This document shows, piece after piece, positions 13,625 through 23,028 of a stretch of 64,000 nucleotides of DNA. The notes below the pieces were generated by a model that was given only the letters and a program-made list of their open reading frames with translations, did no database searches and was not told the origin of the DNA. Numbering within the stretch: the first letter of the stretch is position 1; each line of letters starts with the position of its first letter. The stretch covers positions 1 through 64,000 of the forward strand of contig JAKVBK010000012.1 in the NCBI GenBank assembly GCA_022447275.1, in the 5' to 3' direction. A program made the translations under genes and the position numbers. The stretch comes from Oceanicola sp. GTDB taxonomy: Bacteria; Pseudomonadota; Alphaproteobacteria; Rhodobacterales; Rhodobacteraceae.

Positions 13625-14695
13625 ATGCAAGTCGACATCACCCCGCAGATGACCCGGGCCCCGCACCACGCCGTTTTCGTTGTGGTGCCACGCTTCAATC
13701 TGACCACTCTGGTCACCATGATTGAGACCATGCGGATCGCGAATTACCTCGCGCCAAGCCCTATGTTTTCATGGGATATTATCTCTTTTGATGGCCCGGA
13801 AATCGTCGCCAGCAACGGCATGACAACCACGGTCGCAACGGATCACGGCAGCCTTGGGCAGGCGCAATATGTGTTTGTGTTGGGCAGCTGGGGAACGGAG
13901 CATTATGCCAACCCCGCCCTGCTTGCCTGGCTGCGCAAACGCGCCCGCGCGGGCGAGACGATCTGCGGTGTCGAACTGGGCAGCTATATCGTTGCGCGCG
14001 CAGGCCTGTTGGATGGGCTGCCTGCCACGATCCATTGGTCCTGGCTCAGCGGGTTTCGCGAAAGCTTTGACCGCGTCGATGTGCGCGAGTGCCTGTTCAC
14101 TATGGATGGCAAGGTCATGACCTGTTCGGGCGGTCTGGCAGGGGTGGACCTGATGCTGCGCTTGATCGAAACAAACAGCGACAGCGGCTTTTCGGGCGAA
14201 ATCGCAGATCAGATGCTGCACCACCCGATCCGGGATGCCCACGCCTCCCAACGCAGCACGATGGGCCGCAGCACCGAGACGATGCTGCCCATTGTGCGCG
14301 AAGCCATGACCCTGATCGAAGAGAACATTGAAGAGCCCCTGAAAGTGCCCGAGATTGCAGCGGTGCTGGGCGTTTCGCAGCGCCAACTTGAGCGCCAGTT
14401 TAAAAAGCATGTGGGCTGCACGGTGGTGCAGTTTGGCCTGTTGCGCCGTTTGCAAAATGCCCGTCTGCTGCTGATTTCCACCGACTTGAGCGTGCGTGAA
14501 ATTGCAACGGCTTCAGGCTTCAATACCCTGTCGCATTTCGCCTACTCCTTTGGCAGGTTCTTCGGCCGCCGTCCCTCCGAATATCGCGAGGCCTGGCCGC
14601 AAAATGAGCCGGCGCCAAGCTGGCCCGGCTCGCTGTCTGATTTCCTGTCTGTCCTGAGCAATATGCCGAGCGCGGATCAGTCAGCCCGGGAATGA
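13625..14695 (+). CDS. GlxA/CdhR-type AraC-family regulator (class I glutamine-amidotransferase-like sensor domain)
   Basis: A 356-residue regulator. A DJ-1/PfpI-like domain (residues about 15-195) contains VFVLGSWGTEHYAN and the nucleophile-elbow region TICGVELGSYIVARAGLL. An AraC double HTH follows (about 235-335): VPEIAAVLGVSQRQLERQFKK and VREIATASGFNTLSHFAYSF. This family includes CdhR, GbdR and SouR, activators of carnitine, betaine and sarcosine catabolism. It is divergent from the BKACE-transporter operon with a 118-base promoter region, so it is the probable activator. Its 3' end overlaps the end of the convergent carnitine-dehydrogenase-like gene by 19 bases. Confidence 0.88.
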   Translation: MQVDITPQMTRAPHHAVFVVVPRFNLTTLVTMIETMRIANYLAPSPMFSWDIISFDGPEIVASNGMTTTVATDHGSLGQAQYVFVLGSWGTEHYANPALLAWLRKRARAGETICGVELGSYIVARAGLLDGLPATIHWSWLSGFRESFDRVDVRECLFTMDGKVMTCSGGLAGVDLMLRLIETNSDSGFSGEIADQMLHHPIRDAHASQRSTMGRSTETMLPIVREAMTLIEENIEEPLKVPEIAAVLGVSQRQLERQFKKHVGCTVVQFGLLRRLQNARLLLISTDLSVREIATASGFNTLSHFAYSFGRFFGRRPSEYREAWPQNEPAPSWPGSLSDFLSVLSNMPSADQSARE

Positions 14696-15627
14696 CGCAA
14701 GGCCTTGAGCACGGCAACGATGTCCCGGTCGCGTTGTGCGGCCATCTCCTCGAAATGCTGATCGCCCGCCATCGCATTGCACCCATCGACCATGCGATCC
14801 CGCAATTCTTGCGTCAGTTCCGGGGCTTCAAGCCGAGTCCACGGTAATTTCAGCGCCGGGCCAAATTGATCGAGATTGGTGGCCATCCCGCCAGCCCCAC
14901 AGGCCACGTGAAACGCCATGCATTGCCCCTGCGACACCATCCGGGGAGCCGGGCCGTTTCTCAGGGCGATGTCGATATCTTCTGGGGTTGCTTCCCCATT
15001 GGCCACCATGTGCAACGCCTCGCGCCACAGCGCCTCTTGCAGGCGGGTGGCCACAAAGCCCGGTATTTCCTTCTTCATCAGAAGCGGCGCTTTGCCCGCG
15101 CATTCATAGAAACGGCCCGCCCAGGCCACAGCCTCCGGTGCGGTTTTCTTGCCGCCGACGATTTCAACCAGAGGCAAGAGATACGGCGGATTGAAGGGAT
15201 GGCCGATTACGCAACGCTCCGGTGAGGCGCAGGTGGCTTGAATGTCACTCATCATCAAGCCAGACGTCGAGGAACCGATCACCACATCGGGCGGCACGAT
15301 CTCCCCCATGCGGTGATAGAGCGCCTGCTTGATCTCCAACCGCTCTGGCGCGCTTTCCTGCACGAACTGGGCGCCGTCGAGGGCCTCTTCCAAATCCGTG
15401 ACAACCCGCAGCCGCTCCAGCGCAGCGCCGGGGGCCAGCCCCAGTTCGGTCAGGCATTTCCAGCCTGTTTGGACGATCAGGTGGAAGGCCTCTTGCTCGG
15501 ACGGATCATGCAGATAAGCCGTCACATCATAGCCGCGCGCCAAGAAATGCGCCGCCCATCCCCCGCCGATTGGACCGCCACCGAGGCTGGCGATGCGGGT
15601 CACCGAAGCTGGATCGGGATACATCAT
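14677..15627 (-). CDS. L-carnitine dehydrogenase-like 3-hydroxyacyl-CoA dehydrogenase family enzyme
   Basis: A 316-residue NAD-dependent dehydrogenase. The dinucleotide motif is ASLGGGPIGGGWA near residue 12. The Ser/His catalytic region is SSTSGL and VIGHPFNPPYLLPLVEIVGG near 130-155, followed by IPGFVATRLQEALWREALHMVANGEAT near 185. The HPFNPPYLLPLVE type and single HAD unit match L-carnitine dehydrogenases, which oxidise carnitine to 3-dehydrocarnitine, rather than fatty-acid enzymes. It starts with ATGATG; ATG 15627 overlaps the stop of the CaiD-like gene as ATGA. Last gene of the 19.0-14.7 kb operon. Its product would be the substrate of the BKACE enzyme encoded 1.2 kb away. Confidence 0.82.
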   Translation of the reverse strand: MMYPDPASVTRIASLGGGPIGGGWAAHFLARGYDVTAYLHDPSEQEAFHLIVQTGWKCLTELGLAPGAALERLRVVTDLEEALDGAQFVQESAPERLEIKQALYHRMGEIVPPDVVIGSSTSGLMMSDIQATCASPERCVIGHPFNPPYLLPLVEIVGGKKTAPEAVAWAGRFYECAGKAPLLMKKEIPGFVATRLQEALWREALHMVANGEATPEDIDIALRNGPAPRMVSQGQCMAFHVACGAGGMATNLDQFGPALKLPWTRLEAPELTQELRDRMVDGCNAMAGDQHFEEMAAQRDRDIVAVLKALRHSRAD

Positions 15628-16427
15628 TCGCCCTTGAAGTTGGGTTCGCGTTTTTCCACGAACGCCGCCACGCCTTCGGCGGCATCATCTGATTTCAGCA
15701 TCTTGCGATAGACCGGCATCGGGTCCGTCCGCATTTTATGGAAGGCCTTCTCCAGAGGCACGCCTTCGATCTCGCGCTGCACTTCCTTGACCGACTGCAT
15801 GGCAAGCGGCGCCGACCACGCGATGGACGCCGCCCATTCGCGTGCCGCATCCATCAGTTGCTCCTTGGGCACCACCTTGTTGACCAGCCCATAATGGGCA
15901 GCCTCAGATGCGGTCATGCGACGGCCCAGCAAGAACATCTCCATGGCGATATTGTGGGGGATGCGGCGCGGCAGGCGTTGCAGCGCGCCCGCATCCGGAA
16001 CAATACCGAGGGGCATTTCGGGCAGGCCAAACTCCACATGCTCCGATGCAATCAGCAGATCGCAGGCCATGGCCATTTCAAAGCCTCCACCAATCGCCAG
16101 CCCGTTTACGGCCGCGATCACCGGTTTGTTGAGGGCCCAGTTTTCGGTCAGGCCAGTAAAGCCGCCCACGCCGTAGTCATCGGTCTCCCACCAATTGTCG
16201 AGCTGCATTTCACCGGCGTTGAGCGCCTTCAGATCCCAGCCCGCCGAAAAAATCTTGTCTCCGCCGCCCGTCAGGATTGCGCAGCGCAGATCCTTGTCCT
16301 CATGCAGTTCTTGAAACGCCGCTGCCAGCGCCTGAGAGGTGGGCACATCGATGGCGTTCACCTTTCCCCGATCCAGCGTGACCTCAAGAACATGGCCCGC
16401 GCGGTGGACCTTTACGCCGTCTGACAT
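15624..16427 (-). CDS. Enoyl-CoA hydratase/isomerase family protein, CaiD-like
   Basis: A 267-residue crotonase-fold protein close in pattern to carnitinyl-CoA dehydratase CaiD: LEVTLDRGKVNAIDVPTS near residue 13, the oxyanion-hole segment IFSAGWDLKALNAGEM near 60, and GGFTGLTENWALNKPVIAAV then IGGGFEMAMACDLL near 90-120. The catalytic Glu region reads FGLPEMPLGIVPDAG. CaiD hydrates crotonobetainyl-CoA to carnitinyl-CoA. A second, more CaiD-like copy is at 33276-34055. Here it lies between the luciferase-like monooxygenase and the carnitine-dehydrogenase-like gene, with tight junctions on both sides. Confidence 0.85.
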   Translation of the reverse strand: MSDGVKVHRAGHVLEVTLDRGKVNAIDVPTSQALAAAFQELHEDKDLRCAILTGGGDKIFSAGWDLKALNAGEMQLDNWWETDDYGVGGFTGLTENWALNKPVIAAVNGLAIGGGFEMAMACDLLIASEHVEFGLPEMPLGIVPDAGALQRLPRRIPHNIAMEMFLLGRRMTASEAAHYGLVNKVVPKEQLMDAAREWAASIAWSAPLAMQSVKEVQREIEGVPLEKAFHKMRTDPMPVYRKMLKSDDAAEGVAAFVEKREPNFKGE

Positions 16428-22413: not shown

Positions 22414-22425
22414 CTGGAGAAAGAG

Positions 22426-23028
22426 ATGATCCCAGAGCTACGCAAAGTCGTCACCTTTGATGAAGACATCCACAGCGAAGGGGGGCGGGCGTCCGAGCCG
22501 GTGCTGCGCATGATTGGGGTGGCCGCGGTGGTGAAAAACCCCTGGGCTGGGAAAGGCTTTGTCGAAGACCTGTCACCCGAGATACAGCGCATGGCGCCGG
22601 TTCTGGGCGAAATGTTGACCAATCGGCTGATCGCACTGGCCGGATCAGGCGATGCGATCGAAGCCTATGGGAAGGCCTGCATCGCGGGTACAAGCTGCGA
22701 AGTGGAGCATGCCTCCGCCCTGATCCACACATTGCAATATGGCAATTTCTACCGCGAAGCTGTCGGGGCCAAAAGCTATTTGGGGTTCACCAACACGCGC
22801 GGGCCGGCCAACACCCAGATCCAGATCCCGCTCATGGACAAACACGATACCGGGCGGCGGTCCCATTATCTGACGGTTCAGTTTTCGATCTATGACGCGC
22901 CGGATGTGGATGAGTTGGTTGTCGCCTTGGGGGCCGCCACGCGCGGACGTCCTCATCATCGCATTGGAGACCGCTATTCGGACCTCGCCGCCCTCGGACG
23001 GGACGTGGAAAACCCGGCAGACGTCTAG
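22426..23028 (+). CDS. DUF1185 (AA_synth) family protein
   Basis: A 200-residue protein matching the PF06684 amino-acid-synthesis family in pattern: IRKVVT-like start, IGVAAVVKNPWAGKGFVEDLSPE near residue 30, GKACIAGTSCEVEHASALIHTLQYGNFYREAVGAKSYLGF near 80, and a C-terminal RPHHRIGDRYSDL. The family has a variant chorismate-mutase fold and only a suggested role in amino-acid metabolism. It lies 12 bases after the fusion gene with GGAGAAAGAG before the ATG, so it belongs to the operon. Its conserved Cys, His and Arg residues make an enzymatic role in the pathway likely, but the reaction is unknown. Confidence 0.8.
   Translation: MIPELRKVVTFDEDIHSEGGRASEPVLRMIGVAAVVKNPWAGKGFVEDLSPEIQRMAPVLGEMLTNRLIALAGSGDAIEAYGKACIAGTSCEVEHASALIHTLQYGNFYREAVGAKSYLGFTNTRGPANTQIQIPLMDKHDTGRRSHYLTVQFSIYDAPDVDELVVALGAATRGRPHHRIGDRYSDLAALGRDVENPADV

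What the first reader, a model, noticed from the sequence alone, without database searches (positions are those of the whole stretch)
14677..23028. Hybrid Rut/Tgn-like oxygenase cluster joined to carnitine-type CoA chemistry
Two divergent operons share a 142-base promoter region (18965-19106). One has aldehyde dehydrogenase, luciferase-like FMN monooxygenase, CaiD-like hydratase and L-carnitine-dehydrogenase-like enzyme. The other has RidA, alpha/beta hydrolase, CoA transferase/flavin reductase fusion and DUF1185. The set monooxygenase + flavin reductase + RidA + hydrolase recalls Rut (uracil); monooxygenase + reductase + aldehyde dehydrogenase + hydrolase recalls Tgn (trigonelline). Neither known system includes CaiB, CaiD or carnitine-dehydrogenase steps. 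Inference: oxidative opening of an N-containing compound gives an aldehyde, which is oxidised, activated to CoA, hydrated and oxidised to a beta-keto acid.
Basis: partly seen in the sequence, partly recalled or inferred. Interest (0 to 1): 0.88.

Follow-up and report, generated by a model that had tools for sequence, protein, structure and literature searches.

The report
Trigonelline-like and carnitine-like degradation regulon
A 19-kilobase gene block, versions of which are shared by many marine bacteria, joins enzymes related to those that open the trigonelline ring with enzymes related to those that break down carnitine, and it likely serves to feed on one methylated nitrogen compound whose identity is still open.

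Summary
[quoted passage not shown] DUF1185 is a relative of TgnF of the trigonelline pathway, so one half (monooxygenase, flavin reductase, aldehyde dehydrogenase, hydrolase, DUF1185) is a Tgn-like module. The other half is carnitine-type. In one genome from each of 295 genera of the window's family, all 12 with this carnitine-dehydrogenase-like gene carry it within 8 kb of this monooxygenase. The genome has a separate dehydrogenase/BKACE locus that passes the carnitine model, so this set probably has another substrate. A 12-base motif occurs exactly twice in the genome assembly, once in each divergent promoter. Best reading: one regulon that probably opens a GABA-shaped N-methylated betaine and passes the product through carnitine-like CoA steps to an N-methylglycine and acetoacetate. 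Substrate and reaction order are inferred. New variant of known kinds.

The parts
4334..5488 (-). serine-hydrolase-like protein at the far end of the block; optional (found in 3 loci: window, L001, L041)
   Evidence: annotated 'serine hydrolase domain-containing protein' in L001
5485..7575 (-). ADP-forming acyl-CoA ligase
   Evidence: NCBIfam hits to 3-hydroxypropionate/acetate--CoA ligases, all below cut-offs; a ligase of this family is in 42 of 42 complete clusters
7572..8732 (-). acyl-CoA dehydrogenase
   Evidence: 53% identical to that of cluster L103 and 57% to L104
8744..9595 (-). ABC transporter permease
   Evidence: 79% identical to the gene annotated ABC transporter permease in L001
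9538..10386 (-). ABC transporter permease
   Evidence: PF00528
10452..11558 (-). ABC substrate-binding protein, closest solved relatives include a GABA sensor
   Evidence: PF13416; 9d57 2.1e-54, GABA sensor 6dgv 2.8e-52, 4eq7 1.5e-49
11622..12623 (-). ABC transporter ATPase
   Evidence: PF00005, TOBE_2
12616..13506 (-). [quoted passage not shown]
   Evidence: PF05853 344 bits; 57% identical to L103's and 54% to the one at the genome's own carnitine-type locus
13587..13598 (+). operator-like motif TGGCGAAAAATC in the BKACE/regulator divergent promoter (13507-13624)
13625..14695 (+). GlxA/AraC-family regulator, GbdR-like (predicted to control both operons)
   Evidence: PF12833; best NCBIfam model GbdR, 236 bits, cut-off 480
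14677..15627 (-). carnitine-dehydrogenase-like 3-hydroxyacid dehydrogenase
   Evidence: 3HCDH_N; L-carnitine DH model 322 bits, cut-off 414
15624..16427 (-). crotonobetainyl-CoA-hydratase-like enoyl-CoA hydratase
   Evidence: NF002936 300 bits, cut-off 500
16431..17471 (-). LLM-class monooxygenase, likely FMNH2-dependent
   Evidence: PF00296; 46% identical to the C58 LLM, among whose 120 listed relatives six carry the name trigonelline monooxygenase
17483..18964 (-). aldehyde dehydrogenase (betaine-aldehyde-dehydrogenase-like)
   Evidence: PF00171; BADH model 485 bits, cut-off 669
18965..19106 (.). 142-base divergent promoter region
19043..19054 (+). operator-like motif TGTCGAAAAATC, second of only two exact copies in the genome assembly
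19107..19508 (+). RidA-family protein
   Evidence: PF01042
19505..20308 (+). alpha/beta hydrolase (3-oxoadipate enol-lactonase-like)
   Evidence: PF00561; nearest solved: esterase 4uhh, enol-lactonase 2xua
20305..22413 (+). fusion: CaiB-type CoA-transferase (about 1-390) + flavin reductase (about 391-560) + Nudix-fold domain (about 562-688)
   Evidence: PF02515 419 bits, PF01613 141 bits; AF2 model and fold comparison; 3rh7 1.5e-60
22426..23028 (+). DUF1185/AA_synth, TgnF-type protein
   Evidence: PF06684 230 bits; only match in the genome assembly; TgnF homology stated in PMC7913881 (passage)

Best explanation
The two divergent operons and the adjoining transporter, BKACE, acyl-CoA dehydrogenase and CoA-ligase genes form one conserved gene block that is likely one regulon for a single catabolic pathway: it is predicted to import a GABA-shaped N-methylated betaine, to open it with a trigonelline-type flavin-dependent monooxygenase system, and would pass the nitrogen-bearing four-carbon acid through carnitine-type CoA steps to an N-methylated glycine plus acetoacetate. 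Proposed order, all inferred from protein families: (1) uptake by the GABA-type or, in other species, glycine-betaine-type ABC transporter; (2) the flavin reductase domain makes reduced flavin for the LLM enzyme, which cleaves the ring or C-N skeleton to an N-acyl/N-formyl amino-aldehyde; (3) aldehyde dehydrogenase gives the acid; (4) alpha/beta hydrolase, RidA and DUF1185 remove the acyl/formyl group and handle enamine/imine intermediates; (5) CoA ligase (with CaiB as an optional CoA-transferase), acyl-CoA dehydrogenase and CaiD-like hydratase make a 3-hydroxy acid with a gamma nitrogen; (6) the CDH-like enzyme oxidises it to the 3-keto acid; (7) BKACE with acetyl-CoA splits it into acetoacetate and an N-methylglycine-type CoA ester. 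Shown: gene content, conservation, linkage, the shared promoter motif, and a separate locus that passes the carnitine model. Not shown: substrate, any reaction, binding of the regulator.
For: One unit: in 295 genera of the window's family (one genome each; the tool gives no family name, Rhodobacteraceae by its named relatives) the CDH orthologue (60% or more) is in 12 genomes, all 12 have the LLM within 8 kb, and the same 12 have the BKACE orthologue (64% or more), 11 of 12 on the LLM's contig (the hypergeometric value 7e-13 ignores shared ancestry). Most of the set also survives in other gene orders: L069, L070, L076-L078, and L044, where flavin reductase, DUF1185 and acyl-CoA dehydrogenase were not seen in the fetched stretch. 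Common control: TGKCGAAAAATC has 2 exact copies in the 3.36-Mb assembly (96% complete), one in each divergent promoter, reversed control 0; over the loci, which are related to each other, the 11-base core occurs 45 times in 36,391 promoter bases against 5 in 1,399,658 others. CdhR of P. aeruginosa, a relative of GbdR, binds GGTCGC half-sites (PMC5806209 passages). Not plain carnitine: the genome has another dehydrogenase-thioesterase that passes the carnitine 3-dehydrogenase model (691 bits, cut-off 592) about 1 kb from a BKACE 85% identical to that of cluster L103; the window's CDH is under both carnitine cut-offs. Ring-opening half: LLM, flavin reductase, ALDH, hydrolase and DUF1185 recur together in Agrobacterium C58, Thalassospira and G092; six of 120 listed relatives of the C58 LLM are named trigonelline monooxygenase; TgnF is a DUF1185 homologue. 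Betaine-type substrate: GbdR-like regulator, GABA-type receptor, OpuAC betaine receptor genes in the flanks of 10 of 83 clusters (one compared with the PDB), a Rieske oxygenase gene between ALDH and LLM in 6 of 83, the one compared (L067) being nearest to carnitine monooxygenase. Products: acetoacetate--CoA ligase in the Aminobacter cluster, sarcosine oxidase beside the P. marina cluster.
Against: No substrate or reaction is demonstrated. The product clues conflict: glutamine-synthetase-III genes (NCBIfam TIGR03105 above cut-off in the two tested) and genes I take for N-methylglutamate synthase subunits lie in the flanks of 7 and 4 of 83 loci; their role in methylamine use is recalled, and it would fit loss of the nitrogen as methylamine rather than as N-methylglycine. 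Sarcosine oxidase and acetoacetate--CoA ligase were each seen at one cluster only. The monooxygenase clade also occurs with a TPP enzyme instead of the carnitine-type genes, and with neither (17 of 29 LLM-bearing genomes lack the CDH orthologue), so the ring-opening half can work without the carnitine half. The exact motif is lineage-limited: of 30 exact copies in 13 other genomes (11 with the CDH, 2 with the LLM only) just 5, in 4 genomes, lie at the cluster; and with one mismatch allowed, 10 of 100 shuffles of the window have 2 or more hits. The acyl-CoA dehydrogenase has no obvious job if ring opening gives an already unsaturated acid. The GABA-type receptor (55% identity or more) is in 19 of 42 complete clusters only. 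RidA and flavin reductase were detected in 30 of 42 each.
Confidence: 0.42

Rival explanations
1. Gamma-butyrobetaine/carnitine catabolism proper: the carnitine-type half is a second, divergent gamma-butyrobetaine-to-glycine-betaine pathway, and the Tgn-like half supplies it with trimethylaminobutyraldehyde-type precursors or handles an unrelated compound.
For: ACDH 53% and BKACE 57% identical to those of cluster L103, whose dehydrogenase passes the carnitine 3-dehydrogenase cut-off; GABA-type receptor; GbdR-like regulator; betaine receptors in some flanks.
Against: The genome has a separate locus that passes the carnitine model, on C10, and further CaiD/ACDH/ligase/thioesterase paralogues at window 32753-38388. 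The window CDH is below both carnitine cut-offs, and its orthologues were not found without the LLM in 295 genera.
Confidence: 0.2
2. A trigonelline pathway variant: the Tgn-like half degrades trigonelline to succinate semialdehyde and methylamine as in Acinetobacter (chemistry recalled), and the carnitine-type half is only co-housed.
For: Same enzyme kinds as Tgn incl. DUF1185; R. pomeroyi DSS-3 did not grow on homarine as effectively as on trigonelline (PMC8269262 passage), and Ruegeria pomeroyi proteins 87-88% identical to the LLM exist (strain not resolved); genes of recalled methylamine use beside some clusters.
Against: The LLM is 46% identical to, and in a separate well-supported clade from, the C58-type clade, to which the proteins named trigonelline monooxygenase are close; co-housing alone does not explain 12 of 12 linkage or reordered clusters keeping most of the set.
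Confidence: 0.17
3. A homarine (N-methylpicolinate) pathway or another marine pyridinium pathway already published.
For: Marine distribution; genes I take for N-methylglutamate synthase nearby in 4 of 83 loci; a homarine paper is cited as involving Mgd (PMC13390433 passage).
Against: By inference, a route through N-methylglutamate does not need CDH, BKACE or CaiD. Another LLM/DUF1185 cluster of the family (L093-L096) is at least as good a candidate. The homarine paper could not be read, so its genes were not compared.
Confidence: 0.1
4. Side chain first: a compound X-CH2-CH2-CH2-COO(-) with a bulky N-heteroaromatic X is shortened by the carnitine-type half, and the Tgn-like half then opens X.
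For: Uses every enzyme incl. the acyl-CoA dehydrogenase; explains why the LLM half can exist alone.
Against: No such natural compound is known to me; the LLM clade outside these clusters would need X alone as substrate.
Confidence: 0.08

Closest known systems
Trigonelline degradation (Tgn, Acinetobacter baylyi ADP1; Perchat 2018, recalled, not held)
   Same: LLM monooxygenase, flavin reductase, aldehyde dehydrogenase, hydrolase, DUF1185/TgnF-type protein in one cluster
   Different: LLM in a separate clade at 46% identity to the C58-type relatives; RidA, CaiB fusion and the whole carnitine-type half added; no direct comparison with TgnA-F of ADP1 was possible
L-carnitine catabolism (carnitine dehydrogenase and BKACE; GbdR/CdhR-type regulator)
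   Same: 3-hydroxyacid dehydrogenase of the carnitine DH family, BKACE, GlxA-family regulator, ABC transporter
   Different: dehydrogenase below both carnitine model cut-offs; acyl-CoA dehydrogenase, CoA ligase and hydratase added; the locus of this genome that passes the carnitine model is elsewhere
Gamma-butyrobetaine-type cluster L103 (ligase, ACDH, CaiD, CDH-thioesterase, BKACE; substrate name is my inference)
   Same: same five enzyme families
   Different: thioesterase part absent; sequences 36-57% identical; no oxygenase half in L103
Uracil degradation (Rut)
   Same: LLM monooxygenase, RidA, alpha/beta hydrolase and flavin reductase folds
   Different: RutC 48 of 169, RutD 73 of 239, RutF 85 of 255 bits; RutA not among the 25 models shown of 31 for the LLM
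S. meliloti SMa0793 (PDB 3rh7)
   Same: flavin reductase with the same C-terminal domain
   Different: 321 residues, not fused to a CoA-transferase

Membership tests
Trigonelline (Tgn) pathway | TgnA-type LLM monooxygenase | tested here: inconclusive
   46% identical to the C58 LLM, among whose 120 listed relatives six are named trigonelline monooxygenase; separate clade, 100/98 against 100/97. TgnA of ADP1 itself was not available.
Trigonelline (Tgn) pathway | partner flavin reductase, aldehyde dehydrogenase, hydrolase and DUF1185 (TgnF) in the cluster | tested here: met
   against the C58 set 39-48% identical, hydrolase 33%
Trigonelline (Tgn) pathway | oxidation of trigonelline | not testable with these tools
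   needs an enzyme or growth assay
Rut pyrimidine pathway | RutC, RutD, RutF equivalogs | tested here: not met
   all far below NCBIfam cut-offs
L-carnitine catabolism | carnitine dehydrogenase equivalog (NF005471 or NF005716) | tested here: not met
   322 of 414 and 263 of 592 bits; the genome's C10 protein does pass NF005716 with 691 bits
L-carnitine catabolism | BKACE acting on dehydrocarnitine | tested here: inconclusive
   family member, 54% (C10) and 57% (L103) identical to BKACEs of carnitine-type loci; 35 positions differ between 51 BKACEs of this cluster type and 3 of the other
Carnitine reduction/hydration (Cai) | CaiD crotonobetainyl-CoA hydratase equivalog | tested here: not met
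   300 of 500 bits; the hydratases of L103 and of window 33276-34055 do not pass either, so this cut-off may not fit these bacteria
Class III CoA-transferase (CaiB/FRC) | fold and catalytic-type Asp | tested here: met
   PF02515 419 bits; Asp177 and its region kept in every full-length fusion shown, lost in L026, L029, L066 and L106; that this Asp is the catalytic one is recalled from formyl-CoA transferase
Homarine (hom) pathway | homology to published hom genes | not testable with these tools
   paper not held
GATase-1-type AraC regulators (GbdR/CdhR) | GbdR equivalog | tested here: not met
   best model GbdR, 236 of 480 bits; AraC-type helix-turn-helix met, DJ-1/PfpI domain 24.7 of 26.6 bits, just under cut-off

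The most novel reading that the evidence does not exclude
A widespread marine pathway, not yet described, in which a Tgn-type flavin monooxygenase opens a GABA-shaped N-methylpyridinium or related cyclic betaine so that the nitrogen stays on a four-carbon chain, and a dedicated copy of the gamma-butyrobetaine/carnitine module then cuts that chain to an N-methylated glycine and acetoacetate, instead of the succinate semialdehyde and methylamine of the known trigonelline route.
Probability: 0.3. Interest if true: 0.78.

Novelty: new variant of a known kind. Interest (0 to 1): 0.6.

Why it matters
The monooxygenase and most of the block are present in Ruegeria, Sulfitobacter, Roseovarius, Planktomarina and uncultured marine lineages. 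From general knowledge these groups take up much of the small organic nitrogen that algae release. If it is one pathway, it points to a marine betaine whose breakdown is unassigned, and it gives a marker set (this LLM with this CDH and BKACE) that makes the question directly testable by growth and metabolite assays.

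Tried and rejected
Rut-type pyrimidine use: rejected on model scores. CaiB as the essential CoA-activating step: rejected because clusters without it, or with a truncated one lacking the Asp region, keep the carnitine-type genes (of 83 loci 30 have CaiB-FR with C-terminal domain, 7 CaiB-FR without it, 5 FR alone, 3 truncated CaiB-FR, 2 hydrolase-FR, in the other 36 no FR was detected; L106 and L107 lie outside these 83). 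Nudix activity of the C-terminal domain: a Nudix-box pattern (E-x7-R-E-x2-E, recalled) is in none of the 47 flavin-reductase proteins; fold only. A mesaconate link for CaiB: its best NCBIfam model is succinyl-CoA:mesaconate CoA-transferase (403 of 700 bits), but the mesaconate-like genes beside the Aminobacter cluster use a CaiB only about 30% identical, and their CitE- and MaoC-like genes were seen at no other locus. BKACE group-specific residues could not be tied to a substrate. LLM-TPP clusters and LLM-CDH clusters do not separate cleanly on the LLM tree: the 63 CDH rows need 12 gains or losses, 9 of them forced by well-supported branches. The wider motif test was partly negative. Ten literature searches showed no paper describing such a cluster in their capped listings; only CC-licensed PMC papers are held.

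Rows dropped before counts: L003-L007 (distant Tgn-type, CaiB-only and own loci) from the 83-locus table; 32 of those 83 loci had too little flank for the 51-locus count; only 80 of 392 confirmed relatives were fetched. Presence tables rest on my own ORF caller and BLAST identity thresholds, and absence from a fetched stretch is not absence from a genome.

Full report

Conservation. The same block, in the same order, is on a plasmid of Parasedimentitalea marina and, with the flavin reductase unfused and no serine-hydrolase gene, of Aminobacter sp. SR38. A scan of genome contigs with the monooxygenase gave 392 confirmed relatives, of which the best 80 were fetched. Of 51 loci with 7 kb or more on both sides, 42 hold CDH, CaiD and BKACE; of those 42 the ALDH and a CoA ligase are in 42, ACDH in 41, hydrolase in 38, regulator in 35, DUF1185 in 34, RidA and flavin reductase in 30 each, CaiB in 26. 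In a separate sample, one genome from each of 295 genera of the window's family (unnamed by the tool, Rhodobacteraceae by its named relatives), the CDH orthologue (60% or more) is in 12 genomes, all 12 carry the LLM within 8 kb, and the same 12 carry the BKACE orthologue (11 of 12 on the LLM's contig). The LLM itself (59% or more) is in 29 genomes, so 17 have it without the CDH orthologue; a DUF1185 gene lies within 11 kb of 27 of 31 LLM places. Most of the set is kept in other gene orders in L069, L070, L076-L078 and in L044, where flavin reductase, DUF1185 and ACDH were not seen in the fetched stretch.

Two modules. The first module (LLM, flavin reductase, ALDH, hydrolase, DUF1185) recurs without the second in Agrobacterium C58 pAt, Thalassospira and G092. 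Six of the 120 listed relatives of the C58 LLM are named flavin-dependent trigonelline monooxygenase by their source, and PMC7913881 calls TgnF of the Acinetobacter trigonelline pathway homologous to its DUF1185-family protein (passage). The window's LLM is 46% identical to the C58 one and falls in a separate clade (92 rows, 100/98; the C58-type clade, 4 rows, 100/97). The second module (ligase, ACDH, CaiD, CDH, BKACE) is related to cluster L103, whose dehydrogenase-thioesterase passes the carnitine 3-dehydrogenase cut-off (782 of 592 bits). The window's CDH does not pass (322 of 414 and 263 of 592), and the window's own genome has another dehydrogenase-thioesterase that does (691 bits), about 1 kb from a BKACE 85% identical to L103's and 88% to L104's. 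So the window's set is a second, paralogous one, and its substrate is probably not carnitine.

Common control. Among the commonest shared words of the two divergent promoters across loci are parts of TGKCGAAAAATC. In the window it has two exact copies, 13587-13598 and 19043-19054, and these are the only two in the 3.36-Mb assembly, with none for the reversed control pattern. In the loci the 11-base core occurs 45 times in 36,391 promoter bases and 5 times in 1,399,658 other bases; 34 of 64 ALDH-side and 11 of 45 BKACE-side regions have it exactly. The motif was derived from these promoters, and the loci are related, so this is not an independent test. Against it, of 30 exact copies in 13 other genomes only 5 (G043 twice, G268, G224, G191) are at the cluster, so the exact form is lineage-limited. 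CdhR, a related regulator of carnitine use, has GGTCGC half-sites with a 15-bp spacer (PMC5806209 passages). That the GlxA-family gene binds the motif is inferred.

Substrate clues. The receptor's closest solved relatives are 9d57, a fluorescent GABA sensor (6dgv) and 4eq7 (the entry name of 4eq7 says polyamine, that it binds GABA is recalled). Ten of 83 clusters have an OpuAC betaine receptor in their flanks; the one compared is nearest to a glycine-betaine/proline receptor. Six of 83 have a Rieske oxygenase between ALDH and LLM; the one compared, L067, is best matched in the PDB by carnitine monooxygenase. Glutamine synthetase III is in the flanks of 7 and genes I take for N-methylglutamate synthase in those of 4 of 83, which, from recalled biochemistry, points to methylamine; sarcosine oxidase and acetoacetate--CoA ligase were each seen at one cluster, pointing to an N-methylglycine and acetoacetate. 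These clues agree on an N-methylated compound and disagree on where the nitrogen goes.

Mechanism. The most economical reading is one pathway: ring or C-N opening by the Tgn-like module, then carnitine-like shortening of the nitrogen-bearing four-carbon acid. The CoA ligase rather than CaiB is the likely activating enzyme, since CaiB is missing or truncated in several clusters. Every chemical step is inferred from families.

Known systems. No paper matching this combination appeared in the capped listings of ten literature searches of CC-licensed PMC papers. Papers of which passages were seen: PMC2954203, PMC7913881, PMC12421898, PMC8269262, PMC10130141, PMC9870897, PMC9723723, PMC10041152, PMC13390433, PMC12817926, PMC5806209, PMC12482172. 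The trigonelline paper (Perchat 2018) and the homarine paper (Ferrer-Gonzalez 2026) are not held; what I say of the Tgn products is recalled. R. pomeroyi's known carnitine transporter is SPO2995-2998 (PMC10130141 passage); whether strain DSS-3 carries this block was not resolved.

Noticed in passing
window 32753-38388: A second set of paralogues: 4HBT thioesterase, CaiD-like hydratase (54% to the first), acyl-CoA dehydrogenase (49%), ADP-forming CoA ligase (35%) and another GlxA regulator, without CDH or BKACE.
   Followed up: partly
L118 3025-7514 (window genome contig C10): A carnitine-type locus: dehydrogenase/thioesterase above the carnitine 3-dehydrogenase cut-off, BKACE and a GlxA-like regulator.
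   Followed up: yes
L093-L096; many genomes: A different LLM cluster of the family: DUF1185 (64-70% to the window's), hydrolase, LLM (39-42% to C58) in all four, flavin reductase and ALDH each seen in three, in L093 beside a LysR regulator, an Asp/Glu racemase and a PLP enzyme. A candidate for the published homarine genes, not tested.
   Followed up: partly
L097, L099, L108, L065, L081, L082, L083: The same LLM clade with a TPP enzyme (best models sulfoacetaldehyde acetyltransferase for L065, below cut-off) and no carnitine-type genes in the fetched stretch; G036 has one cluster of each type.
   Followed up: partly
L013, L015, L031, L036, L067, L075: A Rieske oxygenase gene exactly between ALDH and LLM; the L067 protein is nearest in the PDB to carnitine monooxygenase.
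   Followed up: partly
L067, L072, L102, L107: The flavin reductase is fused to the alpha/beta hydrolase instead of CaiB; elsewhere it stands alone or follows a truncated CaiB.
   Followed up: yes
L002 4274-13078 (Aminobacter sp. SR38): Next to the cluster: ETF and ETF-quinone oxidoreductase, CitE-like lyase, MaoC, CaiB, acyl-CoA dehydrogenase and MmgE/PrpD genes, resembling C5-dicarboxylate use.
   Followed up: no
window 1048-4070: Two short-chain-dehydrogenase-like ORFs and an ORF I take for PreA-like just outside the block; the latter was found in none of the other loci.
   Followed up: no
L067, L102 (and a same-sized ORF in L072): An isocitrate/isopropylmalate-dehydrogenase-family gene faces the LLM in Neomegalonema contigs without carnitine-type genes in the fetched stretch.
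   Followed up: no
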